Of a stretch of DNA of 64,000 bases, positions 6,923 through 20,044 are shown in pieces. The translations under genes and the position numbers were made by a program. The notes beneath the pieces were generated by a model. It did no database searches, was not told the origin of the DNA, and worked only from the letters and a program-made list of their open reading frames with translations. Source of the stretch: Lachnospiraceae bacterium (lineage in GTDB: Bacteria > Bacillota > Clostridia > Lachnospirales > Lachnospiraceae); NCBI GenBank assembly GCA_910573755.1, contig CAJTBO010000010.1, forward strand, positions 1-64,000, given 5' to 3'. Every line of letters starts with the position of its first letter. The stretch's first letter is position 1.

Positions 6923-6996
6923 CGGCGCGTGGCTCAGCTTGGTAGAGCGCTGCGTTCGGGACGCAGAGGTCGCAGGTTCAAATCCTGTCGCGCCGA
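6923..6996 (+). tRNA. tRNA-Pro (anticodon CGG), integration target
   Basis: The cloverleaf has acceptor CGGCGCG/CGCGCCG, anticodon stem CTGCG/CGCAG around loop TTCGGGA (anticodon CGG) and T arm GCAGG-TTCAAAT-CCTGT, with discriminator A and no encoded CCA. Its 3' half, from the anticodon loop on, is repeated at 19999-20044 at the far end of the genomic island, so the gene served as attB and was restored by the incoming element. Confidence 0.96.
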
Positions 6997-6999
6997 GTA
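6954..6999 (+). repeat. attL: 46-bp direct repeat with the tRNA-Pro 3' end
   Basis: Bases from GTTCGGGACGCAGAGG to CGCCGAGTA are identical, over 46 bases, to 19999-20044. The repeat covers the anticodon loop, T arm and acceptor 3' strand plus three bases beyond. It is the left attachment site of the 13-kb island. Confidence 0.93.
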
Positions 7000-7590
7000 T
7001 TGTAGAAAGGATTGGAAGCCTTGAATTTGTGGGGTTTTCCAGTCTTTTTTTATGTCCGGAAACGGATAATCTGGCGGGGTTTAAGAGGGTGTGTTCCAAC
7101 AAAGTTCCAACAAAATTTATTATAATATATGCCAGATGATTTTTAAAAGGGGCTATAGAAACATCTTAGAGACATCTATTTGTTTCAAATGTTTCAACTT
7201 TTTCGGGCAGTAACTATATAATAAGATTTCTTGCATATCGCACAAAATCCAGTAAATAAGTCCTTGCAACTTCACCACTGACATGTATATCTGTTTTAAA
7301 TGATTCAACTTATTATATAAGAGGAAAATGTCTGTATGGAAATGGATACAGGCATTTTTATTTTTAATACACACTTTTCATTCTGCTCTGAAAAGAAAAG
7401 GGGGTAAATGAGATATGTTTCAGGAAGTGTCGCAAAAATAAGAAAACCGCTCTATCGGGACAGTTTTCATGTATGAAAAGTGTATGATTGTTCCGCATGG
7501 ACTGGGTATAGCTTTGGGGACACTTTCTGAAATGAGGAAAATTTTTGGTTTGTCACATTAACTGGTCTAGTTGGGAAAGGAGCAGGCACT
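7000..7590. other. Left-end non-coding region of the island
   Basis: No convincing gene is seen. The region holds a terminator-like hairpin after tRNA-Pro (GGATTGGAA...TTTTCCAGTC plus T run, 7013-7051) and the arm-type repeat at 7097-7115. It also has two copies of a 9-bp tandem motif, (TGTTTCAAM)2 at 7181-7198 and a diverged copy at 7292-7309. An inverted pair, TTTCAGGAAGTGTC (7418-7431) and GACACTTTCTGAAA (7519-7532), lies upstream of the recombinase gene and may be its res-like or operator site. Confidence 0.6.
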
Positions 7591-8166
7591 ATGAAGATTG
7601 GATATGTCAGAGTGAGTACAAAAGAGCAGAATACGGCACGTCAGGAAGAACTTATGAAATCACTGGGAGTTGATAAGGTATACCTTGATAAGATGAGCGG
7701 TAAGGATACCGACCGCCCTGCCCTGCTGGAAATGATGAACTTTATACGTGAGGGAGACAGTGTAATCGCGGAAAGTATCTCACGGTTTGCAAGGAATACA
7801 AAAGATTTACTTGAATTGACAGAGCAGTTAAATAATAAACATGTTCGGTTTATTTCTCAAAAAGAGAATATTGACACGGACACTCCGGCAGGGAAATTTA
7901 TGCTTACAATCTTTGGCGCAGTTGCAGAGCTGGAAAGGGAATACATAAGGCAACGACAAAGAGAAGGCATAGAGATCGCAAAGAAACAAGGCAGGTATAA
8001 GGGAAGGCCTGCAAAACAATTGGATACATTTGATGAAATTTATCATCAATGGAAATCCGGGAATATAACTGCTGCTTCCGCAAGTAAGCAACTGAATATC
8101 AGCAGGAGTACATTTTACCGCAAAGTATATGGGCATGAGAATGATAATAAGCCGATAGATTTTTGA
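7591..8166 (+). CDS. Serine recombinase, resolvase/invertase family
   Basis: A 191-residue small serine recombinase. The N-terminal catalytic domain has GYVRVSTKEQ with the nucleophilic serine near residue 9, then AESISRFARNTKDLLEL and TPAGKFMLTIFGAVAELEREYIRQRQREGI, the conserved arginine-rich active site and long E helix. The C-terminal helix-turn-helix is at about 150-180 (ITAASASKQLNISRSTFYRKV). Length and layout match Tn3-type resolvases and Hin-type invertases. The start follows GGAAAGGAG. The likely role is resolving multimers of the excised island or inverting a segment. The inverted pair upstream could be its site, but that is inference. Confidence 0.93.
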   Translation: MKIGYVRVSTKEQNTARQEELMKSLGVDKVYLDKMSGKDTDRPALLEMMNFIREGDSVIAESISRFARNTKDLLELTEQLNNKHVRFISQKENIDTDTPAGKFMLTIFGAVAELEREYIRQRQREGIEIAKKQGRYKGRPAKQLDTFDEIYHQWKSGNITAASASKQLNISRSTFYRKVYGHENDNKPIDF

Positions 8167-8753
8167 GATGAAAACAGAATGTATTCAGATATGTACTTAC
8201 GGGAAAAAGAAGGATACTTTGTTTAAGATATAGAAAATACAATGAAAACAGAAATGTAAATACATGAAGAGAAAAGATAAAAGATAAAAATATTTTTTAC
8301 AGGCAGGTAATAAAGAATATTACATAGCGGCAGAAACAAAGAGTCCTGTTTTTGGCATTATACAAGTGATAAACATAAAAGCATGGAAAACAGATCGGTT
8401 ACAGTTTTATGAAACCATACGGAAAAAGAGAGGGGGATATACGGTTACTCTCCCACCCTATCCCCTATCTGATCTGTTGATTCATAAAATTTCCTGTAAA
8501 ATATACCCCAAAATTTACAGTAAAGTGATTAAAAAATAACCTAAGAAGGTAATCTGCCTGAATGAGGAATATCAAAATAAAAGGATAACTGGCATTAAAA
8601 AAGTGTCAGTATGTATATGAAACAGAAATGGACAATGTTTATCCTGCATTGTGTATAATAAACATTGTCCATTTCTGGCTATATACACTATTGTTTTGAA
8701 TTATGTAATCCGGTACAATCCCCTTCCATTATAAAAGAAAGGGGGTGTACGTT
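8167..8753. other. 587-base non-coding gap with a large palindrome
   Basis: This AT-rich gap has no supported gene. Its main structure is the 20-bp-armed palindrome at 8623-8677 (separate entry). A C-rich stretch near 8450-8475 is unexplained. Confidence 0.5.
8623..8677. repeat. Perfect 20-bp inverted repeat with 15-base loop
   Basis: CAGAAATGGACAATGTTTAT (8623-8642) is exactly mirrored at 8658-8677. Outer halves TGTATAT/ATATACA extend the symmetry after small mismatches. There is no T run on either strand, so it does not look like an ordinary terminator. It lies about 75 bases before a small gene. Options are a replication or transfer origin hairpin, a recombinase site, or a leader structure. 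Confidence 0.8.
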
Positions 8754-9005
8754 ATGGAGGAAATGAAAAACATACCTGCAGAATTAAGAAGACTTGAAGA
8801 TGTAATTGATACGGTTGAAGGAAAGTTACACAATACAGCAGGGCTTCTTGAACTCATAAGCCTTGGTATGGAGAGACTTAACAGGGAAGAGGATTCCTAT
8901 GAAACCTCCAGTATGCGTATCCTGAAAGAATATCTGTCAGAGGTCAATGGCACAGAGATCACAAAGATACGCACTATACTGGCAGAGATCAAAGGACAGC
9001 TTTAA
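8754..9005 (+). CDS. Small helical hypothetical protein
   Basis: An 83-residue protein beginning MEEMKNIPAELRRLEDVID. The pattern of charged and leucine residues suggests two or three long helices, possibly a coiled coil. ATG at 8754, eight bases after AAAGGGGG, is preferred over a GTG three codons earlier. It converges on the XRE regulator gene, from which it is separated by a bidirectional hairpin. No family is recognised. Confidence 0.65.
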   Translation: MEEMKNIPAELRRLEDVIDTVEGKLHNTAGLLELISLGMERLNREEDSYETSSMRILKEYLSEVNGTEITKIRTILAEIKGQL

Positions 9006-9036
9006 CATGGCCCTGCAATAAAAGCAGTAATAAAAA

Positions 9037-9082
9037 AGGAATGACAAAGGGCATCTAACATGGATACAACCTTGTCATTCCT
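9037..9082. terminator. Bidirectional terminator between convergent genes
   Basis: AGGAATGACAAAGG pairs with CCTTGTCATTCCT (one bulge). It serves the small plus-strand gene and the XRE gene, whose stop codon lies within the right arm. Confidence 0.7.
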
Positions 9083-9368
9083 GTAAACTCAGTAAAAAGG
9101 CTTGCAACAGCTGGTATTGTTTATCATTCAGCATGGAAACATCAAGCAGTTTAACAGTATTAGATTTATCAATACCAAGTAAATAATCAGTGGAACAGTG
9201 ATATAAATGTGCAAGCGATCTGAGTATTTCCGTACTGGGTGTACGCTCATTACTTTCATAGTTTGATATGACAGAGGCAGACACACCAATAGAAGAAGCA
9301 ACCTGTTTCTGGGAAAGATTTCTTAGTATACGCTGTTCCTGTAGCCGTTGGCCTAATCCATTTATCAT
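9075..9368 (-). CDS. XRE-family helix-turn-helix regulator
   Basis: About 97 residues. The Cro/CI-type HTH fills the first ~65 residues: LGQRLQEQRILRNLSQKQVAS, then IGVSASVISNYESNERTPSTEILRSLAHLYHCSTDYLLG, the classic S-x-x-S-x-x-E recognition region. The tail may mediate dimerisation. An ATG with GGAGGT seven bases upstream decides the start, 24 codons after the frame opens. It is divergent from the operon starting at 9507. A perfect inverted repeat, TATGCTGA/TCAGCATA, embraces the -10 box of that promoter, so this protein probably represses the operon and perhaps itself. Confidence 0.9.
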   Translation of the reverse strand: MINGLGQRLQEQRILRNLSQKQVASSIGVSASVISNYESNERTPSTEILRSLAHLYHCSTDYLLGIDKSNTVKLLDVSMLNDKQYQLLQAFLLSLQE

Positions 9369-9439
9369 GCAAGCACCTCCATGAAGTGATTGTACTGTAT
9401 ATGAGTCTGCTTTGGGATATGGGTGGACTGCTATAAGCA

Positions 9440-9475
9440 TTGCAAACTATGCTGAAAGATGATATAATCAGCATA
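9440..9475 (+). promoter_or_regulatory. Promoter with XRE operator for the 9507 operon
   Basis: The -35 is TTGCAA (9440-9445), the spacer 17, and the -10 TATAAT (9463-9468). An 8-bp perfect inverted repeat, TATGCTGA (9448-9455) and TCAGCATA (9468-9475), overlaps the -10, where a bound repressor would block polymerase. Confidence 0.8.
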
Positions 9476-9506
9476 AAACAAACACATTTACGAAAAGGAG
9501 AAAATC

Positions 9507-9980
9507 ATGGATATTAAGGACATTACAAAAGAACAGTTGGAGACATTGATACTGATAAAGAGTTTAGAGGAGTTCATTACAGACGAGCATGAGAACCTTT
9601 CAAGCCTTAGTGAAGTAATCTGGACTTTGGAAGAGAGTTTATCCGATAGGGAACATAAACAGCTTGTATCAGATATCTGCAAGCTGACAGAGACAGGCTA
9701 TATTCTGTCGGATGCAACAGAGGAACATATAGAGACTGACAGAATACCAGAAGTTGAGGGCATCACCCCTAAAGGACAGTCTGTACTTAATGAATGGGAA
9801 AAAGAGATAAGGGGGAGCATTGAAAAGGGGGATAAGGGGGGAAATGTGACTAACAATATTTATAATTTCAAAATTTATAATTTCCTATGTGGGCTTAAAA
9901 TCAATCCAAGCCTTATAAATGGTTCAATCAGTTTATTTGGTGCAATAGGAAACAAAGCAAAGGAGATGTTACATATATGA
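9507..9980 (+). CDS. Hypothetical protein, first gene of the lipoprotein operon
   Basis: A 157-residue protein. The N-terminal ~105 residues are acidic and helical, and end in a stretch like a small winged-helix tail (ITPKGQSVLNEWEKEI, as in many DNA-binding or effector proteins). An Asn-rich segment, GGNVTNNIYNFKIYNF, and a weakly hydrophobic C-terminus follow. The start is preceded by AAAAGGAG. Its stop overlaps the start of the lipoprotein gene by four bases (ATGA), implying translational coupling. The promoter carries an XRE operator. Function is unknown. Confidence 0.75.
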   Translation: MDIKDITKEQLETLILIKSLEEFITDEHENLSSLSEVIWTLEESLSDREHKQLVSDICKLTETGYILSDATEEHIETDRIPEVEGITPKGQSVLNEWEKEIRGSIEKGDKGGNVTNNIYNFKIYNFLCGLKINPSLINGSISLFGAIGNKAKEMLHI

Positions 9981-10717
9981 GAAATAAGAAATTATATAGT
10001 TTAGCAATGGCAGTTACGGTTTCACTTCTGCTGTTTACCGGGTGTGGGGATAAAGGGGAGCCTGTTACAGCAGATTCAGAATCACAAGCATACACCAATG
10101 AGAACGGATATGCAGTTGATGCAACTTCAGGCATGGGAGACACCAGTGGAGAAATTGTTGAAGCAGAGAAACCAGTTGAAGAAGGTAATGGTATGATTGG
10201 GGAAGATACTGACATGACTGGTGATGAATACCATGAGCAATTAGAACAAGCAGAGGAAGAAGCTAACAAAGCAGACCAGAATTTAAACGAATCAACAGGC
10301 ATAGAGATAGTTGAGGAATTAGATAAAACAATGTATGCACAGCAGAATTGTAATTCCCGTTCTGGTGATGGTACAAATTATGACAAAGTAGCATCCATAG
10401 AAAAAGGAGCACAGTTACATGTAACAGGGCGTACCTCAAATGACTGGTATAGAGTAGAATGGGGAGATGGAGTTGTTTACATAGCGGGCAGTTTATTAGG
10501 AGATACAGCCCCCACTACACAACAGCCAAGTGGTGGAAGCAGTTCTGCTGGAGGTAATAGTTCTACTCAACAACCATCAGGAGGCAACGGTCAAACAACC
10601 CAGCCAAGTGGAGGTACACCAACACAGCAAGAAATCCAAGACATCCTAAATGACTTAGGTGGTTTTGGCGGAAGTGTAGAAGATAACAGTAATGATAGCT
10701 GGACACATGATTTATAA
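9977..10717 (+). CDS. Lipoprotein with bacterial SH3 domain
   Basis: A 246-residue secreted lipoprotein. The signal peptide ends in the lipobox LFTGC (Cys near residue 23), so the mature protein is anchored to the outer face of the membrane. An acidic, low-complexity linker (~25-120) leads to an SH3b domain at about 118-172 (AQQNCNSRSGDGTNYDKVA and WYRVEWGDGVVYIAGSLLG). A Gln/Pro/Ser/Gly-rich tail follows. SH3b domains usually bind cell-wall peptides. It is translationally coupled to the upstream gene and followed by a hairpin. It probably works at the cell surface with the secreted protein next door. Confidence 0.87.
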   Translation: MRNKKLYSLAMAVTVSLLLFTGCGDKGEPVTADSESQAYTNENGYAVDATSGMGDTSGEIVEAEKPVEEGNGMIGEDTDMTGDEYHEQLEQAEEEANKADQNLNESTGIEIVEELDKTMYAQQNCNSRSGDGTNYDKVASIEKGAQLHVTGRTSNDWYRVEWGDGVVYIAGSLLGDTAPTTQQPSGGSSSAGGNSSTQQPSGGNGQTTQPSGGTPTQQEIQDILNDLGGFGGSVEDNSNDSWTHDL

Positions 10718-10744
10718 GCAAATGATATTTAAAAAATAAGTAAT

Positions 10745-10785
10745 CAGAGGATAACTCAATTATATGTGAGTTGTCCTCTGTGCTT
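10745..10785 (+). terminator. Hairpin between lipoprotein and secreted-protein genes
   Basis: CAGAGGATAACTCA pairs with TGAGTTGTCCTCTG (one G-T pair), then TGCTTTT. It may be a terminator or partial attenuator, because the next gene follows within 25 bases on the same strand. Confidence 0.65.
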
Positions 10786-10802
10786 TTAAAGGAGGAATCA
10801 AT

Positions 10803-12452
10803 ATGCAACTTGATAAGCATACTAAACATAAGACAAGACCTAAGTTGCTGACAATTCTGTTATCATTGATACTCACCATATCAATGATAACACCAATATT
10901 TACTTCACAACCACTTCAAGTACAAGCAGAAGATGGAGGAGATATGGGAGCAGAAGATGGAGGAGGTGGTACTGGAGTTTATGATGGGGGTCCGATGTCG
11001 TCACGTACGGGTTGGATTTTCTATTGTATAGACTTATCCAACAACCAAGTCACCCCCACAGTAGCCACTACATCATCTGGCCCAATAGTAGACAAAAACG
11101 GAAATAGCCTACCCAGTAGTAATATAAGTTTAACAAGCAGATATGGAGTATCAGCATCTGGATATAGCACAACAGATTGTGACTGGGGTCCACCCCATAC
11201 TGAAGGTGGAGAAGGACGAGGTGACGAAGTAAAAGACTTCATGCTATCATCTGGAGAAGGAGGACAAAAGAAAGCATACAACCTAATCAACAGAGCCTTT
11301 GGACAAAGTTATGCCGAACAATGGAATAATAGAGAAGTTTATTTAGTATTTGAACCATTTTACTGGTACAATGCTTTGGCTGGAAGTGGAAAACAAATCG
11401 GTTGGTATTGCATGACATCATACAAGTGGGGAGCATTTCATAAAGCTATAGGCTGTCCAGAAACAGGTATGTCATATTTTAAAAGATACACAAATAAAGT
11501 ATGGCCTACATGTGTAAAACTTGATGGTTCAGCAGAGACAGCAGCTTTAGGATATTCACCAGTAAGTGGTGCACAGACAAATACAGCCATGGCAACAAAA
11601 AATGTAGGTGCTGGTATAGGTATTGTATGGAATGATGATAATGATGCACAAACCACATGTGATGAAAGCCAAAATGGTACACCAAGCAGACCAGAAGACG
11701 AATCAACTGGCGTATACAAAATTGTTAAATCCTATAGAATCCGAAACCTAGACACAAATGTACTCACAGACAAAGGAACCTATATCAAGCCTGATTCAAG
11801 TCCTAAAATAAGCATAGAAGATGAAAGCGAATACAAACTTATAGCATGGAAGACATCAACGACATACAAATCAGATATAAGTAGTATAAAATGGGAATCA
11901 ACAGTACCAGCAGTACACAAGCAAAGTGGAACAACTCCAACAACAATAGAAATGAAGGCACCTGAAACAACATTGTATTTGTTGTTAGAGAAACCAGAAA
12001 ATGAATCTACTCCTGTAACTGGACAAGCAGATTTTGTTATGAGTCAGTCAACCATTACACGAAAGATTAAATTGTCATATCCAGACAATAATGGTATAAC
12101 CATTATGAAAGACACTCTGTTTAAGTGGGTAAGACCAGCACACAAAAGTAGTTGTAGCGGGCATAGTTATGCAGATGGAAAAGATAGTGAAGGAAATACA
12201 AAATATAGTACAGCATATTGTAGTTATGGTAAATTTACAGATAATTCAGTTAGATTTTCATTAAAGAACTCTGAAAAATCAAATTATCCAGATATAGTAG
12301 CAACAAAATCAGGCTGGGAAAATGTAACCACAACAGGTTTAAAAGAGCCACTTGCAAAACAAGCAGCTCTCATGTATAATCTACTTAGAAAGGTTGATCG
12401 GACACGAAGTTCCGATTTGCCCTCAGTGAATTTAATATTTCAAAAGAAATAG
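10803..12452 (+). CDS. Secreted protein of unknown function, probably 3'-truncated
   Basis: 549 residues, with a basic N-terminus, a hydrophobic signal core (LLTILLSLILTISMITPIF) and likely cleavage near QVQAE. The mature part is rich in Ser/Thr/Asn/Gly, with W and Y clusters and a few cysteines, like Gram-positive surface proteins. No LPxTG or membrane anchor is present. The last ~25 codons (from about RKVDRTRSSDLP) lie inside the promoter, antitoxin RNA and shared terminator of the type I toxin-antitoxin locus. The natural C-terminus was therefore probably lost when that locus was acquired. GGAGGAATCAAT precedes the start. It follows the SH3 lipoprotein and may act with it. Confidence 0.75.
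   Translation: MQLDKHTKHKTRPKLLTILLSLILTISMITPIFTSQPLQVQAEDGGDMGAEDGGGGTGVYDGGPMSSRTGWIFYCIDLSNNQVTPTVATTSSGPIVDKNGNSLPSSNISLTSRYGVSASGYSTTDCDWGPPHTEGGEGRGDEVKDFMLSSGEGGQKKAYNLINRAFGQSYAEQWNNREVYLVFEPFYWYNALAGSGKQIGWYCMTSYKWGAFHKAIGCPETGMSYFKRYTNKVWPTCVKLDGSAETAALGYSPVSGAQTNTAMATKNVGAGIGIVWNDDNDAQTTCDESQNGTPSRPEDESTGVYKIVKSYRIRNLDTNVLTDKGTYIKPDSSPKISIEDESEYKLIAWKTSTTYKSDISSIKWESTVPAVHKQSGTTPTTIEMKAPETTLYLLLEKPENESTPVTGQADFVMSQSTITRKIKLSYPDNNGITIMKDTLFKWVRPAHKSSCSGHSYADGKDSEGNTKYSTAYCSYGKFTDNSVRFSLKNSEKSNYPDIVATKSGWENVTTTGLKEPLAKQAALMYNLLRKVDRTRSSDLPSVNLIFQKK
12352..12380 (+). promoter_or_regulatory. Promoter of antitoxin RNA
   Basis: TTGCAA (12352-12357), 17-base spacer, TATAAT (12375-12380). 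It lies inside the end of the secreted-protein gene and points at the toxin gene's 3' end. Confidence 0.7.
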
Positions 12453-12490
12453 CATCATACCTTGGGCGGTTGGGATGCTATTTCTTTTTA
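12387..12490 (+). ncRNA. Putative antitoxin sRNA of a type I toxin-antitoxin pair
   Basis: Predicted ~100-nt RNA starting about seven bases after the -10 box. It contains a small hairpin (ATCGGA/TCCGAT, 12397-12416) and ends in the long hairpin GAAATAGCATC/GATGCTATTTC followed by TTTTT. Because toxin mRNA runs the other way through the same terminator, the two RNAs are complementary over the toxin stop codon region. This convergent, shared-terminator plan is that of the enterococcal par (Fst) and TxpA/RatA loci. Start and end are inferred from motifs. Confidence 0.65.
12442..12489. terminator. Bidirectional terminator shared by toxin and antitoxin RNAs
   Basis: AAAAGAAATAGCATC is mirrored by GATGCTATTTCTTTT, with T runs on both strands. 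The toxin stop codon lies in the right arm and the stop of the secreted-protein gene in the left. Confidence 0.85.
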
Positions 12491-12558
12491 TGATTATCTA
12501 TGTAAGACAGAGCCGCAAAGATAACAAGCAATAATGTCAAAACTTCCATCACGCTCAT
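12478..12558 (-). CDS. Type I toxin peptide, holin-like/Fst-type
   Basis: A 26-residue peptide: MSVMEVLTLLLVIFAALSY followed by IDNHKKK. It has one hydrophobic helix with a charged lysine-rich tail, the signature of the Fst/TxpA/holin-like toxin families that insert into the producer's own membrane. AGAGGGTGAT lies just upstream. The promoter on the minus strand is TTGAGC - 17 bases - TATAAT (12666 to 12638). The messenger ends in the hairpin shared with the antisense antitoxin. It probably stabilises the island by killing or arresting cells that lose it. Confidence 0.85.
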   Translation of the reverse strand: MSVMEVLTLLLVIFAALSYIDNHKKK

Positions 12559-12637
12559 GGGCATCACCCTCTTTCGTAAGACTAGAGGGCACCTATCAGA
12601 AAACCGCATCCTGCTTCCTTTTCAATTATACAATCCC

Positions 12638-12666
12638 ATTATAACATGAATAAATGTACTGCTCAA
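12638..12666 (-). promoter_or_regulatory. Promoter of the type I toxin gene
   Basis: Minus strand: TTGAGC (12666-12661), 17-base spacer, TATAAT (12643-12638). The ~70-base leader before the toxin ATG contains a further hairpin-forming stretch. Confidence 0.75.
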
Positions 12667-13159
12667 TCTAAAAAGAAGATATAAGCATATTTTATATTTT
12701 ACGGACTGTCTGTTTCAAATGTTTCAACTTTTTAAAACGTTCTGCGCAATGGATATGGAAGATGCATGTTAATGAAAATGGTAAAAATGGATATGTAATG
12801 CATAAATGAATACAGTGTGTAAAAATCAATATCCATGAAAGGGTTTATCATACTTACTAAAATTTCTCCATGTGGAATATCAGCAACAATGAACATATAA
12901 AAACAAATATTGCATTATGAAAAAATCAAGTTGTACAAGTTAATAGAAATTGTTGGCTTGTCAGTATACAGTGGGGTGGTTCCTGCATTATCCGATGAAG
13001 TTGGTATGTAGTGGGTATTTCATAATAGTAAAAAAGTGGTTTTGTGCACCAGAAAAAATGGTATGGTGCATTGGGATAATTTTTAAAAGTGTATATTAAA
13101 AATACGGGAAAATAAGCATGGCCTTCAATAGAAAATAAAAATCTGTTGGAGGTACTTTT
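12667..13159. other. 493-base AT-rich non-coding gap
   Basis: No supported gene. It contains one copy of the 9-bp tandem motif (TGTTTCAAA TGTTTCAAC, 12711-12728) and several short ATGGATATG-like repeats near 12750-12850. It separates the toxin locus from the SprT-like gene. Confidence 0.45.
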
Positions 13160-13813
13160 ATGTTATCAGAACATAATGAATTTTTAGAAAGGGCATACAG
13201 GATATTGAATAGGGTATATTTTGAGGACAGCCTGCCGGAGGTAGTGATTACAATACAGTCCTCTCAAAAATCATACGGCCATATCACGGTTGGGGAGATC
13301 TGGAAGGACAGCTGGGATTCCTATCATGAAATCAACCTGTCGGCAGAGTACCTTAACAGACCTGTGGAAAACATTATCAGTACTCTGGTTCATGAAATGT
13401 GTCATTTGTATGCTATGGAAAATAATATAAAGGACACATCAAATAATAACCGCTATCACAATAAAAAATTTAAAGAGATAGCAGAAAAAAGGGATTTGAA
13501 AATAAGCTACCATGAGAGCATAGGATGGAGTGTAACCGAGCCTACAGAAAAGTTAATAGAAACGATAAAGGAAAATCATTTAGATTCCCAGATAGGGTAT
13601 GTGCGTATGGGGGCTTATGGCTGGACTGGTGGAGATAATGGAAATGATGGGGATAATGGAAATGGTTTAACTGGCACGAATGGCAAAAAGCCAAAAAAGA
13701 AAAGCAGTACAAGAAAATATATCTGCCCTAAATGTGGTAATTCAGTGAGGGCTACAAAGGATGTAAATATAGCGTGCCTTGATTGTCTGTTGCAGATGGT
13801 GAAAGAGGAATAA
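13160..13813 (+). CDS. SprT-like zinc metalloprotease-family protein
   Basis: 217 residues. The SprT-like domain has the metalloprotease motif HEMCHLYAME (His-Glu-x-x-x-His, near residue 78) within TLVHEMCHLYAMENN. A second histidine region follows (NRYHNKKFKEIAEKRDL). A Gly/Asn-rich linker leads to a C-terminal zinc ribbon with C-P-K-C and C-L-D-C pairs. SprT/Spartan relatives cleave proteins crosslinked or bound to DNA. Copies on mobile elements are common but their role there is unknown. The start follows TTGGAGGTAC. It stands alone in the island. Confidence 0.85.
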   Translation: MLSEHNEFLERAYRILNRVYFEDSLPEVVITIQSSQKSYGHITVGEIWKDSWDSYHEINLSAEYLNRPVENIISTLVHEMCHLYAMENNIKDTSNNNRYHNKKFKEIAEKRDLKISYHESIGWSVTEPTEKLIETIKENHLDSQIGYVRMGAYGWTGGDNGNDGDNGNGLTGTNGKKPKKKSSTRKYICPKCGNSVRATKDVNIACLDCLLQMVKEE

Positions 13814-13973
13814 AAATCAAAAATTCCTCTACAATCTCCCTAAAAATCAGTGACACATAATGGTTTATTTCCTTGCACTATCACGTCTATGCACATAAAT
13901 GTTTCAGCGTTAAGATTTATTTGTAAGTTAAATAAAGTTAGTGCTGAGGCACAGAAAGAAAGAGGTAAGCATT

Positions 13974-14471
13974 ATGTGTATGTATTTGACAAACGGTAAC
14001 TTTTTAGGGCAGAGGCTGATAGGCTATGAATTCTATGACAGCAAGAGCAAGGGCTTCGTAGGCATGACGGAGAAGCAGGTCATTACAAAGCTGAAAAACA
14101 ATGAAAAGGTTTATGGCTTTATCCTTGGGGAAGAGGACGGGAAAGAAGTCCTTAAACTGGATGTTGAGGGCTTCAACATGGGCAACTTGCAGTTGAAAAC
14201 CGGTGTAAACAGCCTGTCATGGATGAATGAGGACAGCGGTTCAGATATGAACATGGAACTTATTGTTGTAGCGGCCAGCGGTGACAAGAAGAAAGTTTAT
14301 GAGACAGTCAATGCCAGACATGCAAGGATGGAATATACCGAGGACAAGCTGAAGATGATGCTGGAAATCGGGGTGCCTGTTGCGGGTGTACGGCTTGAAA
14401 AGAATAAGCTTGTAGCCTGTGAGGGTGTGGAGATTATCGGTAATGAGGAAGAAGTAAAAGAGGGGGCGTAA
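13974..14471 (+). CDS. Hypothetical island protein
   Basis: 166 residues beginning MCMYLTNGNFLGQRLIGYEF. AGAGGT nine bases upstream fixes this start over an earlier in-frame codon. The protein is soluble, mixed alpha/beta in appearance, with no signal, membrane segment or known motif. TGC/ATG context and acidic tail (EVKEGA) are unremarkable. GC is higher than in neighbouring island genes. It is followed directly by a G-rich/C-rich self-complementary stretch around its stop (GGGGGC...CCCCCTCTTTTG) that can act as terminator. Confidence 0.65.
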   Translation: MCMYLTNGNFLGQRLIGYEFYDSKSKGFVGMTEKQVITKLKNNEKVYGFILGEEDGKEVLKLDVEGFNMGNLQLKTGVNSLSWMNEDSGSDMNMELIVVAASGDKKKVYETVNARHARMEYTEDKLKMMLEIGVPVAGVRLEKNKLVACEGVEIIGNEEEVKEGA

Positions 14472-14556
14472 GCCCCCTCTTTTGAGGACAGGACATAAAA
14501 GGGTTTAAAGAGGTTCCAGAGGGATACAGAGAGATTTGAGAGAGGTACAGGGAGAA

Positions 14557-14766
14557 ATGATTGAACAGTATAGGGGATATGAGATAAAAGTATTTTGGAG
14601 TGAGATTGATAATGGTTATGTATTCTGCATCTTTACCAGTGACGGCACGGGCATTATAGAAAGTAATGTTTACCATTATGAAAAATTTGCATTACCGGGG
14701 GCAAGGGAAACAGTTGACCGATACATAGAGGTTAAGGAAAGGGGGCTTGACAGATGGACTATCTGA
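14557..14766 (+). CDS. Small hypothetical protein
   Basis: 69 residues beginning MIEQYRGYEIKVFW. Alternating hydrophobic and polar residues suggest a small beta-rich fold, ending in a helix (PGARETVDRYIEVKERGLD). The start is uncertain: GAGAGGTACAGGGAG lies upstream, and a TTG seven codons earlier is possible. Its 3' end overlaps the start of a membrane peptide gene by 13 bases, suggesting coupling. No family is recognised. Confidence 0.6.
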   Translation: MIEQYRGYEIKVFWSEIDNGYVFCIFTSDGTGIIESNVYHYEKFALPGARETVDRYIEVKERGLDRWTI

Positions 14767-14897
14767 CATTTACAGTAATCCATACAATGGTAATCATTTC
14801 ATTATGTGGAGCAGTTTATTTAGGGAAACAGTGTTTCATTTTCATACGCTGGATAGCAAAAGGGATATGGAAAGAACTGGAAGAGGATAAAAATTAA
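14754..14897 (+). CDS. 47-residue membrane peptide
   Basis: The frame begins MDYLTFTVIHTMVIISLCGA and forms one membrane helix, followed by a basic/aromatic stretch and an acidic tail (WKELEEDKN). AAGGGGG precedes the ATG by eight bases. It overlaps the preceding gene's stop. It resembles the small single-helix proteins common on mobile elements. No role can be assigned. Confidence 0.5.
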   Translation: MDYLTFTVIHTMVIISLCGAVYLGKQCFIFIRWIAKGIWKELEEDKN

Positions 14898-14981
14898 AGG
14901 CTGGGATATACGGCAAAATCCATAAAAACCAGTTTAAAATTCCGTTAAGAACCACTACAGCCAAAAGAAAAAATGGATGGT

Positions 14982-15018
14982 ACAATCCCTTGCAGGGTTG
15001 GGGCAGGGGATTGTTTTT
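14982..15018 (+). terminator. Rho-independent terminator
   Basis: ACAATCCC pairs with GGGATTGT, followed by TTTTTG. It ends the two-gene cluster just upstream. Confidence 0.75.
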
Positions 15019-15111
15019 GTAACTGTAAACAATGATTTTGAACATTAAAAAGGAAATTTGTCTTATAGGTTATAATACGTGCCTGACAACACATACACAA
15101 GGGGGCTGAAC

Positions 15112-15198
15112 ATGGAACAGCTGATTGCTCTGGGTAACCAGAAATATACAGCAGAGCAAATCTACAATAAATTAAAAAGGGCGGGGGTGGTAGACTGA
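15112..15198 (+). CDS. 28-residue peptide, coupled leader
   Basis: The frame begins MEQLIALGNQKYTAEQIYNK and ends GVVD. AAGGGGG lies six bases before ATG, and its stop overlaps the next start as TGATG. A TATAAT-like -10 lies about 45 bases upstream. The tight coupling and ribosome site make it a likely real small gene. Function is unknown. Confidence 0.45.
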   Translation: MEQLIALGNQKYTAEQIYNKLKRAGVVD

Positions 15199-15374
15199 TG
15201 AAAGCAGTTGTCAAACATAATGGAGTGGAGTTGCCAGAGTCTTTGTGCCTTGTCAACACGGCAAGCAACATTGTTACATTGGAAACAATGTTAGAACCCA
15301 ATATAAGCCTTGACCTTGACAAGGTTTATGTTGAGGTCAACCTGTTTGGGGATCTGGAAGAATTGGAAGATTAA
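15198..15374 (+). CDS. 58-residue acidic hypothetical protein
   Basis: The frame begins MKAVVKHNGVELPESLCLVN and ends GDLEELED. It is acidic, with no membrane segment. Its ATG overlaps the previous stop (TGATG), and a GGGGGTGG stretch inside the upstream gene can serve as ribosome site. A hairpin with T run follows (about 15378-15414). It is too short for family recognition. Confidence 0.5.
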   Translation: MKAVVKHNGVELPESLCLVNTASNIVTLETMLEPNISLDLDKVYVEVNLFGDLEELED

Positions 15375-16068
15375 AAAGGACTGCTCATGGCCTGAAGGCT
15401 GTGAGTGGTTTTTTATGGACGTAGATTTAAGTATACACTTTAATGTTGAGGAATTGGGAGAGATGGAAATAATGTCATGTATGATTTCCCAAAAGTGCAC
15501 GTTAAGGGAGGGGTGATATATTTTTTTCAGAAAAAGTAATTTTTCGGGTGTGGAAACAAGGTTTCCAGAAAAAAAGTGTGTAGGGGTATAACGCTGTGAT
15601 GAAAAATCGGGTGTACACAAAAATCAGACTGGTTGGAAAAACAGTGATTCAGTATGTTATGCATGGGATGCTGAACAATGAGAAATTTTAAAAAGACCAT
15701 AAGGGGGGAGCATTTCAGAAAAACATATTTATATAAGAAGTAATACATACGCTGTAGATAGAGCCAGCATAAGAAGAAAAGTGATTCAGGAGAGAAAAAG
15801 AGTATACAATTATGGTAATAAACTATAAGCAATTGGCAGATTATCATAAATGCAAAATCCTGTCTTGTTGGAAAAATGATAAGGCAAGAGGAAGAAACGA
15901 TATTGCCGGAGCAGTTGACCGCTAAATACCATTTTGTTTCAAATGTTTCAAGTTTATATAAAAGAAACACAAAATATCCAAACATGGTGCCTATGAGTTA
16001 CCGTTCAAAATACAAGATGATTTTAGGGCACTTATGTTATATAATGTGTTTAGCGGAGGAATATTGGA
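15375..16068. other. 694-base largely non-coding gap
   Basis: It begins with a terminator-like hairpin (CTGCTCATGGCC/GGCTGTGAGTGG then TTTTTT). A 30-codon frame at 15599-15691 has only a distant GGGG upstream and is weak. The 9-bp tandem motif (TGTTTCAAA TGTTTCAAG) recurs at 15935-15952, about 115 bases before the next gene. Otherwise nothing is supported. Confidence 0.45.
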
Positions 16069-16833
16069 ATGGCAGACACCAGTAATGAGAAAAAGCGCAA
16101 AAGCGTAAAAACCATATATGATAGAAATACAGGTCTTTCAATTATGATTAACTTATATGTGATAAAATATATATACTATCATATAGACAAAGCCCGTTGT
16201 TTTATAGATGAGGACGAACGGGGAAAAAAGAGGAAATCATATCCGATTTATTGTACGGATATGCTCCCGGTATCAAGGCAAAGGCTCAACAGAATAAATA
16301 ACGGACAATGCTTTGAATTTACCCGGGCAGAAGCAAACTCCATAACAGAAACTTTTGGAATAGAAATGAAATATTTCAGAAAAGACGACCCGATAGCATT
16401 CGAGATAGATGGTATTGACGAGACCAGCTGGAAGTGCTTTTATAAATCGAAGTACGAGGTCGATTATGACTTGCATATTGATTTTGAAAACGAGGGGGAT
16501 GATATAGTTAAACAGAAAGTAGAGGATATATTAAAAGACCTATCCAAGGATTGGGAACAGAAACTTAAATGTGACAATCCCATTTTTGCCATTTGTTACT
16601 ATTTCAAATACGGTGAAAGATTTGACAGACCGAACGCTATCAAAAGCCTCAAAGATATTCTGTGTGAATTGGATTACAGGGAATGGGAGAAAGAAAGCAC
16701 TACATCACTGAGTGAACTGCTAAAACTTCTGAGAGGACATTATAATTATATCAATTCACTTGTAACCCTTAATAAATTGAAAAAGGAGCAACAAGAGAAA
16801 AAACAACATCCAATACCTAAAACAAAGAGATAA
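16069..16833 (+). CDS. Hypothetical protein with possible HTH segment
   Basis: 254 residues, hydrophilic, no signal or membrane segment. A stretch at about 66-100 (LPVSRQRLNRINNGQCFEFTR, then EANSITETFGI) resembles a lambda-repressor-like helix-turn-helix. The basic C-terminus (LKKEQQEKKQHPIPKTKR) would suit nucleic-acid binding. The start follows GCGGAGGAAT. A (TGTTTCAAM)2 motif lies upstream and a strong terminator downstream, so it is monocistronic. It could be a regulator of the island; this is inference from weak similarity. Confidence 0.6.
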   Translation: MADTSNEKKRKSVKTIYDRNTGLSIMINLYVIKYIYYHIDKARCFIDEDERGKKRKSYPIYCTDMLPVSRQRLNRINNGQCFEFTRAEANSITETFGIEMKYFRKDDPIAFEIDGIDETSWKCFYKSKYEVDYDLHIDFENEGDDIVKQKVEDILKDLSKDWEQKLKCDNPIFAICYYFKYGERFDRPNAIKSLKDILCELDYREWEKESTTSLSELLKLLRGHYNYINSLVTLNKLKKEQQEKKQHPIPKTKR

Positions 16834-16835
16834 TG

Positions 16836-16868
16836 GGAGGTGTGCTTGCAAAGCATACCTCCTTTTTT
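16836..16868 (+). terminator. Rho-independent terminator
   Basis: GGAGGTGTGC pairs with GCATACCTCC, followed by TTTTTT. Confidence 0.9.
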
Positions 16869-17248
16869 ATGTGGTACAAAATCAACATTAAGTGTTACAC
16901 AAAAAATTACAGCATGTCTTTTATTAACCACAAAACACGCTATGTATGACCTGATTAAGACCATATAGACGTTATACTATAGCGTGTTATAATTGTATTA
17001 TCGAGAGGGGGAAAACAAAATGAAAGATACATAAAGATAAAAGACAAAAAAATCGAACCTTGACAAAAATATGCCGAAAATTTCCAAAACTGCGCCGGAG
17101 GAAGTGGAAGGGATATCATATGGAACCCGTAAACAGGTTTTCAAGGGGGCAGTATACCCACCCATAGGGCGCAGTATGGGGGAAGCCTGCCCAAAAATAA
17201 GCAACTCTGAAAAAAGCAACTAATGTTTATCATAGAAAGGAGACACTT
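16869..17248. other. 380-base regulatory gap with inverted repeat
   Basis: A 10-bp inverted repeat, AACACGCTAT (16934-16943) and ATAGCGTGTT (16979-16988), encloses promoter-like TATACT and TATAAT sequences near 16974-16993. This suggests an operator for the following gene. The remainder (17000-17230) encodes nothing convincing. Confidence 0.5.
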
Positions 17249-18367
17249 ATGAGCAGAAATATCAATATGGAAAATAATATGCAGGAGGTAGATGCAACTA
17301 TGAACAGCGCAGAAAAAAATAATAATGTGGAGGCAGAAACTATGGCAAACGAAATCAATAAAAATGAGGAGGGAAAAGTTATGGAAGCCAGCTTTAAGGA
17401 AACAGCAGATACTATTATGGATAATGCGTTAGCAGCCGCAATGCCTTCGGATATCGACGAAATTATCCCGGCAGAAGAAAGGGGCGTTTCAGAAAAAAAA
17501 CATTCGAAGAACATTGTGCCTCTTACTGTTGTGGAAATTATTGAACCGTTAGGGAACATAATTCCAGAGATACCTGAAAACGAACGGGCAGAAGTAACCA
17601 AAGAAGATTACATTGACTTGAAAGAATCCATAAAACATGGTTTTTTTGATCCCGTACGGGGCATGAAAGGATTCAAGACTAATACAGGACATTTGTTTTA
17701 TGCCCGGATTTTTACGGATTCAAAAGGGAACCGCTGGATAGAATACTGCCAGCAGTACAGCGACGATTCTTACTCTGCGAAAATGAATGTGAAGCAGGCT
17801 GACCTGATTGCCGGCGCCTACTTTTTTTGTGATGAGGAAAATACCAATTCCGGGTTCATGTCAAAAAATACCGGCGCTAAAATTGTCGCGAATGTACGCA
17901 ATGATTACTATAATAAAACCGCATTCCCAAAAGAATGCGTAAGCATAAAACAATTATTCTTGTTTTTATTAAGCATTTACAGTTTACTCCCTACCGAAAG
18001 TGACTCATTAAAAGAATATGATTACCCGGACAGGTTCTATGCAGATATCATGATGGCAATCCGGAAAAACCAGGCTTGGTTTGATGACAGTTTACATAAA
18101 GCATATTATGCCCTTAATACAGAACAGATTGACAAGATTGCCAATACATTGAATATAAAAAGAGACCTGTTATTGAAAAAGCTGAAAGAATACAAATTCC
18201 TGTATCTCACGGATTCATCCAAAGGATATCAGACATGTGTTCGTTTTCCTGCTGAAAAGAATAAACTGGGAGCGGAATTTTTTCCAGAATCTTACACCAA
18301 ATGGAGTTATTGTATACTTAATCTGGAATATCTGGCAAACCAGTTAACAAAAAAGAAACAGAAGTAA
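17249..18367 (+). CDS. Hypothetical protein with disordered N-terminus
   Basis: 372 residues. The first ~115 are acidic, Asn/Glu-rich and probably disordered. Residues ~120-210 look globular (FFDPVRGMKGFKTNTGHLFYARIF). The C-terminal third is helical and includes a possible winged helix (EQIDKIANTLNIKRDLLLKKL). It is not recognised. It lies directly before the integrase on the same strand, a common place for replication or excision factors, but no motif proves this. The start follows GAAAGGAGACACTT. An inverted repeat in its promoter region suggests repression. Confidence 0.65.
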   Translation: MSRNINMENNMQEVDATMNSAEKNNNVEAETMANEINKNEEGKVMEASFKETADTIMDNALAAAMPSDIDEIIPAEERGVSEKKHSKNIVPLTVVEIIEPLGNIIPEIPENERAEVTKEDYIDLKESIKHGFFDPVRGMKGFKTNTGHLFYARIFTDSKGNRWIEYCQQYSDDSYSAKMNVKQADLIAGAYFFCDEENTNSGFMSKNTGAKIVANVRNDYYNKTAFPKECVSIKQLFLFLLSIYSLLPTESDSLKEYDYPDRFYADIMMAIRKNQAWFDDSLHKAYYALNTEQIDKIANTLNIKRDLLLKKLKEYKFLYLTDSSKGYQTCVRFPAEKNKLGAEFFPESYTKWSYCILNLEYLANQLTKKKQK

Positions 18368-18433
18368 ATCCTGCTCTCTTACTGGAAAAGATATGAATTA
18401 TTTAGCCTATATCAGCTTATATGAAATTCAGTC

Positions 18434-18469
18434 TTGACAATCGGGGATGGCCAGCGGTACCATCCCCGA
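18434..18469 (+). promoter_or_regulatory. Integrase promoter with perfect inverted repeat
   Basis: TTGACA (18434-18439) precedes TCGGGGATGG (18441-18450), which pairs perfectly with CCATCCCCGA (18460-18469) around nine bases. A weak TACCAT could be the -10. No T run follows, so an operator or leader hairpin controlling the integrase is likelier than a terminator. Confidence 0.6.
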
Positions 18470-18497
18470 ACAATACGAAACAACAGGAGGAAAAAAT

Positions 18498-19697
18498 ATG
18501 TCAACCAATAAAAATGTCAGAGGATGCCTTATAGAGAGAAAAGGAAAATATTATGTGGTAGTCAGCTATTATGCCGGGGAACATCGTTTGCAGGATACGA
18601 AGTCAACCGGAATTTCAATAGCTTCACATAAGAAGAGGGAGGCAGAGAAGATAAGAGACCGGCTCGTGCAGGAGAAAGAAATGGAACTGGAACAGCTTGC
18701 ACAGAAAAAAGAATCGCATTCATTTGCAGACTGTTTTGAGAGATGGATCGATCATAAATCCAAACAGATAGAAAGTACAACTGCATGGGGATATAAAAAA
18801 CGGAGCAAGACAATCATAGAGTATTTCCGTAAGGAAGATATCAGGATTGAGGAATTACAGCCGAGAGACCTGCTTAAATATTGCGAATGGGCATTGGCAA
18901 ACGGACGTCGGAATATCTATAATGAAAATACTCCGACTGGTTTGAGCAGACGGACGGTAAGAGACCAGCTGACTTTGATGAAAGGCTTTCTGAATGATGC
19001 GGTTGTACAGGGTGTCATCATGACGAATCCGGCAGACAAGGTACAGGTGCCGAGGGTAAAGGAAAGCAACGTGAAAGAGGTTGCTTACATGGATAAAGAG
19101 CAGGCGACGGCATTTCTGAACTTTATAAAAGCGGAGCCACTTTTTGAAAGGCTGTACTGCATCACGAAAGTCGGTCTGTACTATGGATGCAGAAGGTCGG
19201 AGATACTCGGTCTGAAATGGAGTGCGGTTGATTTTGAAAAAGGGTCGATTGTCATAAACCATACAATCGTAAGGACAGAGGCAGGAGACATATGCAGAGA
19301 CAACGTAAAAACAGAAAGCTCCTACCGCTATTATCCGTTGCTGGACAGTATAAAGGGTGACCTTAAGGAACTTATGGAATCCCAGAAAAAACTGGGCATC
19401 TACTCAAAGGATGGATATGTGTTCACATGGGATAACGGAAGAGTATACAGCCCGGACTACATAACCAAGCATTTCAAGAAAGCAGTCATAAGATGCGGAT
19501 GTGTGCCGGAAGGTTTAACGGTACATAAATTGAGGCACAGCTGTTGTGCCATCCTGTTTGAGGAGGGCTGGGATTTAGGCAAGGTTCAGAACTGGCTGGG
19601 GCATAGCGATATTACAGTGACGGCTAATATTTACAACCATGTCAGCCGGAAATGGAAGAATAAACATGGTGAAAAAGCGGACGAGATATTCGGCTAA
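18498..19697 (+). CDS. Tyrosine site-specific integrase
   Basis: About 399 residues. The N-terminal arm-binding domain (RKGKYYVVVSYYAGEHRLQ) is followed by a SAM-like core-binding domain (~65-190) and the catalytic domain. Active-site landmarks are GLYYGCRRSEILGLKW (first Arg), HKLRHSCCAILFEEG (His-x-x-Arg-His) and WLGHSDITVTANIYNHV (His/Trp and nucleophilic Tyr). ATG with AGGAGGAAAAAAT decides the start, 17 codons after the frame opens. It is the last gene before attR and in the usual position for an enzyme integrating into tRNA-Pro. Confidence 0.95.
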   Translation: MSTNKNVRGCLIERKGKYYVVVSYYAGEHRLQDTKSTGISIASHKKREAEKIRDRLVQEKEMELEQLAQKKESHSFADCFERWIDHKSKQIESTTAWGYKKRSKTIIEYFRKEDIRIEELQPRDLLKYCEWALANGRRNIYNENTPTGLSRRTVRDQLTLMKGFLNDAVVQGVIMTNPADKVQVPRVKESNVKEVAYMDKEQATAFLNFIKAEPLFERLYCITKVGLYYGCRRSEILGLKWSAVDFEKGSIVINHTIVRTEAGDICRDNVKTESSYRYYPLLDSIKGDLKELMESQKKLGIYSKDGYVFTWDNGRVYSPDYITKHFKKAVIRCGCVPEGLTVHKLRHSCCAILFEEGWDLGKVQNWLGHSDITVTANIYNHVSRKWKNKHGEKADEIFG

Positions 19698-19716
19698 ACA
19701 GCCATAATACAAAATG

Positions 19717-19749
19717 GGGATACCTGCAACAGAAAAAGTATCCCTTTTT
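19717..19749 (+). terminator. Integrase terminator
   Basis: GGGATAC pairs with GTATCCC, followed by TTTTTATT. Confidence 0.85.
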
Positions 19750-19998
19750 ATTGTACCAATCATAGAAATATGATATGCTGTCTAATATAAAAATACGAGA
19801 TGCTTAAAGGATTCAGACGTTGTGTGAAATCCATTGTTATCAATAATTTGGGGAGAGGGTCAACAAAGTTCCAACAAAAGTTTGGAAAAGTGCTGGATAT
19901 GGGCATGGACAGGGGAAAAATGGACGTGTCCGAGGGTATACAGACGTATCCCAAGGGGAAAAATGGACGTATAGGGGATTTTTAAAGGCGGGCAGTTT
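19750..19998. other. attP right-arm region with short direct repeats
   Basis: Between integrase terminator and attR lie CAACAAAGTTCCAACAAAA (19861-19879, also at 7097-7115) and two copies of AGGGGAAAAATGGACGT (19911-19927, 19954-19970; 43-base period). They are good candidates for integrase arm or excisionase binding sites. No gene is supported. Confidence 0.65.
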
Positions 19999-20044
19999 GT
20001 TCGGGACGCAGAGGTCGCAGGTTCAAATCCTGTCGCGCCGAGTA
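19999..20044 (+). repeat. attR: 46-bp copy of the tRNA-Pro 3' end
   Basis: Identical to 6954-6999. Only the 3' part of the tRNA is present here, so no second tRNA is made. Confidence 0.93.

What the first reader, a model, noticed from the sequence alone, without database searches (positions are those of the whole stretch)
12352..12666. Complete type I toxin-antitoxin locus (26-residue toxin) hidden at the end of a secreted-protein gene
A minus-strand peptide (MSVMEVLTLLLVIFAALSY plus a lysine tail) has its own consensus promoter and ribosome site. A plus-strand promoter (TTGCAA-17-TATAAT) drives a ~100-nt RNA towards it, and both RNAs end in one bidirectional hairpin. This is the par/Fst plan. 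It is below usual gene-calling limits and may be the island's stability system.
Basis: partly seen in the sequence, partly recalled or inferred. Interest (0 to 1): 0.78.

Follow-up and report, generated by a model that had tools for sequence, protein, structure and literature searches.

The report
Likely peptide toxin with RNA antitoxin
A hidden 26-residue membrane-type peptide gene and an opposing small-RNA promoter appear to form a conserved toxin-antitoxin switch found in many bacteria of one gut-associated order; it resembles Bacillus systems of the BsrG/BsrE kind rather than the Fst system first suggested, and some relatives look wired to the DNA-damage response.

Summary
A 26-codon ORF (minus strand, 12558-12478) faces a plus-strand promoter (12352-12380), with a hairpin between them. 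It is not chance: 125 distinct loci encode the peptide (own copies included), and in 88 aligned loci leader, hairpins and antitoxin promoter are conserved. The host genome has four copies, three of them in or near DNA with recombinase genes. A type I toxin-antitoxin is well supported; transcripts and toxicity are inferred.

The par/Fst assignment fails. Leader and antitoxin region share inverted, not direct, repeats; no Fst-model match; no PXXXG. A second covarying hairpin (T2, 12343-12371), oriented as a toxin terminator, encloses the antitoxin -35, so the toxin mRNA probably runs through the whole antitoxin gene. Leader and 3'UTR then pair in a long helix with compensatory changes, exclusive with the SD and antitoxin hairpins. 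This resembles BsrG/SR4. The peptide is a shortened, sub-threshold relative of Pfam Hol_Tox.

New: 19 of 125 loci carry a GAAC-N4-GTTC SOS box at or near the toxin -35; this copy does not. New variant of a known kind.

The parts
12478..12558 (-). Toxin CDS, 26 codons plus stop; its AAAAAGAAATAG end is, on the plus strand, the T-tract of the antitoxin terminator
   Evidence: family conservation; pN/pS 0.20
12638..12666 (-). Toxin promoter TTGAGC-17-TATAAT with extended -10 (TGn); start site about 12631 (inferred)
   Evidence: -10 region conserved
12559..12631 (-). Toxin 5' leader with SD (12575-12567) and anti-SD arm GCCCTC (12590-12585)
   Evidence: SD hairpin covariation
12352..12380 (+). Antitoxin promoter TTGCAA-17-TATAAT
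   Evidence: TTG and four of the six -10 bases invariant in 88 sequences
12387..12489 (+). Antitoxin RNA, about 103 nt (both ends inferred)
   Evidence: promoter and T1 positions; fold of 12387-12500 z -3.77
12442..12488 (.). T1 hairpin, terminator of the antitoxin; bidirectional-looking in group 1, weaker in toxin direction in group 2
12341..12371 (-). T2 hairpin (12343-12371) plus short T-run, proposed toxin mRNA terminator; encloses the antitoxin -35
   Evidence: (hairpin of 7 bp or more in 93 of 125, strict rule met in 71 of 125; this copy has a 13-bp stem but only 3 T of 8)
12605..12611 (-). Leader arm GGATGCG of the long-distance helix, pairs with 12406-12400
   Evidence: 15 and 9 sequences with both sides changed at two pairs
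12400..12424 (-). 3'UTR arms: GAGGGC (12424-12419) pairs with the anti-SD arm; CGTGTCC (12406-12400) pairs with 12611-12605
6954..20044 (.). Integrated element carrying the locus, bounded by a 46-bp repeat of the tRNA-Pro 3' part

Best explanation
A type I toxin-antitoxin module of the BsrG/BsrE (Hol_Tox) kind. The minus strand makes a roughly 290-nt mRNA for a 26-residue membrane peptide; the plus strand makes a roughly 103-nt antitoxin RNA. The toxin mRNA, or a large part of it, reads through T1 and ends at T2, so the antitoxin is antisense to its 3'UTR. In free mRNA the leader pairs with the 3'UTR in a long 5'-3' helix that holds the anti-SD arm away and leaves the SD in a weak 4-bp hairpin. 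When the antitoxin pairs with the 3'UTR, the leader is released, GCCCTC(T) pairs with (A)GAGGG and translation stops; the duplex would also be an RNase III substrate. Loss of the antitoxin, for example with loss of the island, would let toxin be made. Shown by sequence: peptide family, promoters, hairpins, both alternative pairings. Inferred: transcripts, T2 use, switching, toxicity, membrane insertion, island stabilisation.
For: Peptide conserved, pN/pS 0.20. Antitoxin promoter bases invariant in 88. T2: 71 of 125 strict, with 53 distinct 5' arms among them; shuffles 28 of 2500. Group-2 T1 weak in toxin direction (mean 3.9 T of 8 in the 14 rows parsed, against 5.7 in antitoxin direction). RNAalifold, given no structure, pairs leader 90-96 with 3'UTR 416-422. 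Long-distance helix: 37 doubly changed cells against 14.0 +- 2.9 shuffled; 91.9% paired against at most 47.3% slid. SD, T1 and antitoxin hairpins: 29 against 3.8 +- 1.8. Leader-3'UTR duplex beats shuffles in three groups and is weaker across groups. Predicted anti-SD partner: 3'UTR 0.83 in full-length mRNA, SD 0.92 in T1-ended mRNA. Full-length fold z -6.25 against -2.43 for the T1-ended form. Homology to Hol_Tox: hhalign 97.9%, E 6e-13; intermediates at 35-50 bits. BsrG precedent: antitoxin binding at the mRNA 3' end alters the SD region (passages of PMC8167048 and PMC6562991).
Against: No transcript, toxicity or half-life data. T1 in group 1 also has a fair T-run in toxin direction (mean 5.4 of 8, 86 of 91 loci parsed), so some or most toxin mRNA could end there. 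The window copy's T2 has a short T-run (3 of 8). In the predicted full-length mRNA the SD is still mostly paired (unpaired 0.187, against 0.034 when T1-ended). In B. subtilis only SR4 on bsrG is reported to change the SD fold; RatA and SR5 were reported to act by degradation alone (PMC6562991 passage), and SR5's toxin is the nearer one in size. The window peptide is below Hol_Tox's cut-off (10.5-10.8 against 23.3 bits). Covariation cells count sequences, not events, and relatedness inflates them; one slid version (+2) has 39 doubly changed cells, though only 44.7% paired, and the count of further pair types is no better than shuffles (307 of 500). pN/pS is biased low because loci were found by peptide similarity.
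Confidence: 0.7

Rival explanations
1. par/Fst-type module: both RNAs end at the shared bidirectional T1 hairpin; a short antitoxin pairs with the SD region and the terminator loop.
For: T1 has T-runs on both sides in group 1. Antitoxin AUUGCCCUC can pair with SD GAGGGUGAU through G-U pairs (read). The leader hairpin sequesters the SD.
Against: No direct repeats above shuffles in group 1 or the Hol_Tox-type group, slight in group 2 (17.3 against 15.2 +- 2.8); no Fst model match; no PXXXG; T2 and the leader-3'UTR covariation need a longer mRNA; group-2 T1 is weak in toxin direction.
Confidence: 0.16
2. A regulated small membrane protein under antisense control that is not a toxin, for instance an inhibitor like ComI of plasmid pBS32.
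For: NCBIfam ComI is the commonest weak match (17 of 32 members, best E 2.4e-4; window peptide 15.5 bits against a cut-off of 55).
Against: Architecture, multicopy mobile setting and Hol_Tox homology fit type I toxins.
Confidence: 0.12
3. A conserved structured non-coding cassette whose ORF is incidental.
For: The RNA is strongly structured; the window peptide reaches no Pfam or NCBIfam cut-off.
Against: pN/pS 0.20 (with the bias noted), conserved start and SD, hydrophobic pattern kept across a 4-residue length change.
Confidence: 0.02

Closest known systems
BsrE/SR5 and BsrG/SR4 of Bacillus subtilis
   Same: Small hydrophobic toxin, convergent antisense RNA overlapping the toxin mRNA 3' end, a main helix in bsrG mRNA, SD region in a stem, carriage on prophages (passages of PMC6562991, PMC8167048, PMC8309996). 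BsrE mRNA 255-260 nt, SR5 163 nt.
   Different: Peptide 26 aa against 30 (BsrE) or 38 (BsrG); T2 lies upstream of the antitoxin start, so the antitoxin gene is fully nested; antitoxin about 103 nt (inferred); SOS box in some members. That BsrE itself belongs to Hol_Tox is recalled, not tested.
Pfam PF16935 Hol_Tox
   Same: Homologous peptide (hhalign 97.9%); Hol_Tox relatives in the same order keep the same inverted-repeat layout.
   Different: Lacks about 4 residues in the hydrophobic span; scores under the gathering cut-off.
par/Fst (pAD1)
   Same: Convergent promoters, terminator hairpin between them, SD sequestration.
   Different: Inverted instead of direct repeats, no PXXXG, no Fst model match, probably a longer toxin mRNA.
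tisB, symE, dinQ of E. coli
   Same: SOS-box control of a type I toxin promoter, proposed only for the 19 loci with a box (a PMC6562991 passage names these three as having Lex boxes).
   Different: Unrelated peptides and RNA layouts (recalled).

Membership tests
par/Fst | Direct repeats DRa/DRb shared by toxin leader and antitoxin region | tested here: not met
   group 1 15.6 against 15.2 +- 2.7 shuffled; group 2 17.3 against 15.2 +- 2.8; Hol_Tox-type 15.0 against 14.7 +- 2.5; inverted exceeds direct in 88 of 91, 10 of 13 and 10 of 11
par/Fst | Convergent promoters | tested here: met
   (sequence only)
par/Fst | Bidirectional terminator shared by both RNAs | tested here: inconclusive
   T1 bidirectional-looking in group 1, weak in toxin direction in group 2; T2 beyond
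par/Fst | Fst peptide homology and PXXXG motif | tested here: not met
   peptide contains no P or G
Hol_Tox (PF16935) | Score above gathering cut-off 23.3 | tested here: not met
   10.5-10.8 bits for the window peptide
Hol_Tox (PF16935) | Homology by profile comparison | tested here: met
   against a profile of 6 peptides; 5 of these 6 were scanned and all 5 exceed the cut-off
BsrG/BsrE type I TA | Antitoxin antisense to the toxin mRNA 3' region | tested here: inconclusive
   geometry and T2 support it; transcripts were not measured
BsrG/BsrE type I TA | Main 5'-3' helix in the toxin mRNA | tested here: met
   (prediction and covariation)
BsrG/BsrE type I TA | Toxicity relieved by antitoxin RNA | not testable with these tools
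   needs expression experiments

The most novel reading that the evidence does not exclude
The toxin mRNA is a bistable switch in which its own 3'UTR activates translation by holding the anti-SD arm, and the antitoxin, a same-sense mimic of the toxin leader born from an inverted duplication, works by taking over that 3'UTR; in SOS-box members, some on viral contigs, DNA damage fires the toxin.
Probability: 0.3. Interest if true: 0.68.

Novelty: new variant of a known kind. Interest (0 to 1): 0.52.

Why it matters
It adds a type I TA clade of Lachnospirales whose window member reaches no Pfam or NCBIfam cut-off and whose ORF is far below usual gene-calling lengths. Two mutually exclusive, covarying mRNA folds make the BsrG-type switch testable by evolution-guided mutation. 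SOS boxes in part of the clade would tie prophage- or island-borne toxins to DNA damage in these bacteria.

Tried and rejected
Single-sequence promoter and terminator scans were uninformative. Rfam at gathering thresholds: two tRNAs in the window and nothing else. Family libraries: the window peptide reaches no Pfam or NCBIfam cut-off; over 32 members the best Hol_Tox E-value is 0.0013 (7 members) and the best ComI E-value 2.4e-4 (17 members); PHROGs best 0.033, no function named except one weak holin family; PADLOC none. Plasmid collection: no match; phage collection: one unannotated record, not opened. ComI as a lead: PMC10601692 passages describe ComI as an inhibitor of natural transformation, and 'antitoxin' has 0 occurrences there. 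Antitoxin-leader pairing through direct repeats as in Fst: rejected.

Papers: PMC7472228, PMC6562991, PMC8167048, PMC8309996, PMC6563280, PMC10601692, PMC11318856 and PMC4234289 were seen as passages only; all others as search listings. The paper searches used names and terms, not the sequence; no listing named this peptide family. Nine papers hold 'putative holin-like toxin' and were not opened. PMC6563280 notes earlier in-silico TxpA-like and Fst-like hits in Clostridium bolteae, which might be relatives; not checked. Subscription papers are not covered.

Changed on checking: group-2 T1 is weak, not empty, in toxin direction, so confidence in the best explanation went from 0.72 to 0.70 and in the par/Fst rival from 0.15 to 0.16.

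Full report
Observation. On this sequence alone the promoter scan is not better than shuffles (7 against 7.5 expected).

Relatives. The host genome holds four copies. The peptide occurs in 4 of 9 genomes of the genus, 30 of 200 of the family and, with the alignment profile, 29 of 294 of the order (these include weak Hol_Tox-type hits), the host counted each time; in a phylum-wide sample only the host matched, 1 of 398. A scan of named GTDB contigs confirmed 354 relatives, of which the best 80 were kept; their titles are mostly Lachnospiraceae or other Clostridia, with some unplaced MAGs and one labelled Tenericutes. Nine viral contigs match. From loci fetched up to then, 149 hits gave 140 with full flanks and 125 after dropping near-duplicates and peptides over 34 aa; the four own copies are among the 125. 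Codon comparison (3000 random pairs of 101 distinct sequences, codons 2-22) gives pN/pS 0.20; the loci were found by peptide similarity, which biases pN down.

Anatomy. In 88 of 91 group-1 loci (L032, L042 and L123 were dropped before aligning) the leader, SD hairpin, ORF, T1, antitoxin hairpin and antitoxin promoter align end to end, with antitoxin -10 and -35 bases invariant. The codons AAA AAG AAA and the stop give the toxin its lysine tail and, on the other strand, the T-tract of the antitoxin terminator.

Where the toxin mRNA ends. Just downstream of the antitoxin -10 complement lies T2, a hairpin followed by T in toxin direction. The script found the -10 pattern in 120 of 125 loci, a hairpin of 7 or more pairs after it in 93 (81 of these begin 3-6 nt after the -10), and the strict rule (3 GC pairs, 4 T of 8) met in 71 of 125, against 28 of 2500 mononucleotide shuffles and 9 of 125 in a neighbouring window; the strict stems have 53 distinct 5' arms. 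The window copy has a 13-bp stem but misses the T count. In group 1, T1 has a fair T-run in toxin direction too (mean 5.4 of 8, against 6.4 in antitoxin direction; 86 of 91 parsed), so use of both ends is possible. In group 2 and kin, T1 has 3-5 T of 8 in toxin direction (mean 3.9) and a mean of 5.7 in antitoxin direction in the 14 of 17 printed rows that parsed.

Two alternative folds. RNAalifold, given no structure, proposes pairing of leader columns 90-96 with 3'UTR columns 416-422, with 15 and 9 sequences changed on both sides at two pairs. A nested set of leader-3'UTR helices is 91.9% paired, with 37 doubly changed cells against 14.0 +- 2.9 in shuffles (0 of 500) and at most 47.3% paired when slid; one slid version (+2) reaches 39 such cells but is 44.7% paired. 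The structure was named after looking at the same alignment, which favours it over slid versions. The local SD, T1 and antitoxin hairpins are also supported (29 against 3.8 +- 1.8 doubly changed cells), although their count of further pair types equals shuffles (15 against 14.9). The SD hairpin and the leader-3'UTR helix use the same GCCCTC arm, so they exclude each other. Thermodynamic folding of 88 of 91 loci (3 skipped by the script; 5' end set 80 nt before the start codon) puts the anti-SD arm on the 3'UTR in full-length mRNA (mean 0.83) and on the SD in a T1-ended mRNA (0.92); the SD is unpaired at 0.187 against 0.034, so it is still mostly paired in the full-length form, in L001 by a 4-bp hairpin. 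The window's full-length mRNA folds at z -6.25, its T1-ended form at -2.43. Leader-3'UTR duplex energy beats dinucleotide-shuffled leaders in three groups (group 1 -43.1 against -25.9, 91 loci; group 2 -47.3 against -26.8, 13 of 17 loci used; Hol_Tox-type -43.6 against -27.2, 11 loci including near-duplicates) and weakens when leaders and 3'UTRs of different groups are mixed.

par/Fst test. The par review (PMC7472228, passages) describes convergent promoters, a shared bidirectional terminator, direct repeats DRa/DRb, SD sequestration and a PXXXG(C) peptide motif. Direct repeats are absent in group 1 and the Hol_Tox-type group and slight in group 2, while inverted ones are strong; Fst model matches are absent; PXXXG is absent. 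Membership is therefore not claimed.

BsrG/BsrE test. Weak profile hits in the order include peptides that pass Pfam Hol_Tox (5 of 6 scanned, 35-50 bits) with the same inverted-repeat layout; profile-profile comparison gives 97.9%. Passages of PMC6562991 and PMC8167048 describe antitoxin binding at the bsrG mRNA 3' end changing the SD region, a main helix, and RNase III cleavage; they also say that RatA and SR5 act by degradation without such a change. The locus works, by its anatomy, most like BsrG/SR4. Its peptide is a shortened relative of Hol_Tox below that model's cut-off.

SOS boxes. GAAC-N4-GTTC (B. subtilis box as quoted in PMC4234289, passage) occurs 25 times in the 170 bp upstream of 125 toxins, against 0.26 expected from mononucleotide shuffles and about 1.2 from the density over all fetched loci, the boxes themselves included (31 in 566,663 bases). 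Nineteen loci have it 98-118 bases before the start codon, at or near the -35, including viral contigs L137 and L139. The other 6 sites (5 loci) lie at -52 or -67 in the leader and look like a different palindrome. Of 8 lexA-like loci fetched from 7 genomes, 7 could be read and 3 have the exact box within 300 bp upstream, the host's own included. The window copy has none, so SOS control is not claimed for it.

Setting. The locus lies in a 13-kb element between 46-bp repeats of the tRNA-Pro 3' part (6954 and 19999), with a tyrosine integrase and a resolvase. Of the other three copies, one is in a diverged partial copy of this element (recombinases there not looked for), one about 1 kb from a large serine recombinase, and one about 0.6 kb from a tyrosine integrase, where only 12341-12678 matches the window.

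Verdict. A stability role is plausible and untested.

Noticed in passing
window 6954-6999 and 19999-20044: A 46-bp repeat of the tRNA-Pro 3' part marks the ends of a 13-kb integrated element.
   Followed up: yes
window 7176, 7287, 12706, 15930: A 28-bp motif (82-100% alike) recurs in the element at places that look intergenic; possible regulator-binding repeats.
   Followed up: no
G000:C10:155168-155224 (L143): A Hol_Tox match above Pfam's cut-off lies near the end of the same contig as the window.
   Followed up: no
L054, L065, L070, L082, L089, leader region: Five loci have inserts with a GAAC-N4-GTTC palindrome between GGATGC and the anti-SD arm.
   Followed up: partly
L043: One relative has its tail expanded to 18 residues, 15 of them K or R.
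   Followed up: no
L027, L055, L133: Two copies of the TA unit about 0.4-0.8 kb apart.
   Followed up: no
window 10803-12452 and 9977-10717: Genes with export-signal-like starts inside the element: 549 aa without a Pfam match, 246 aa with an SH3_3 domain.
   Followed up: partly
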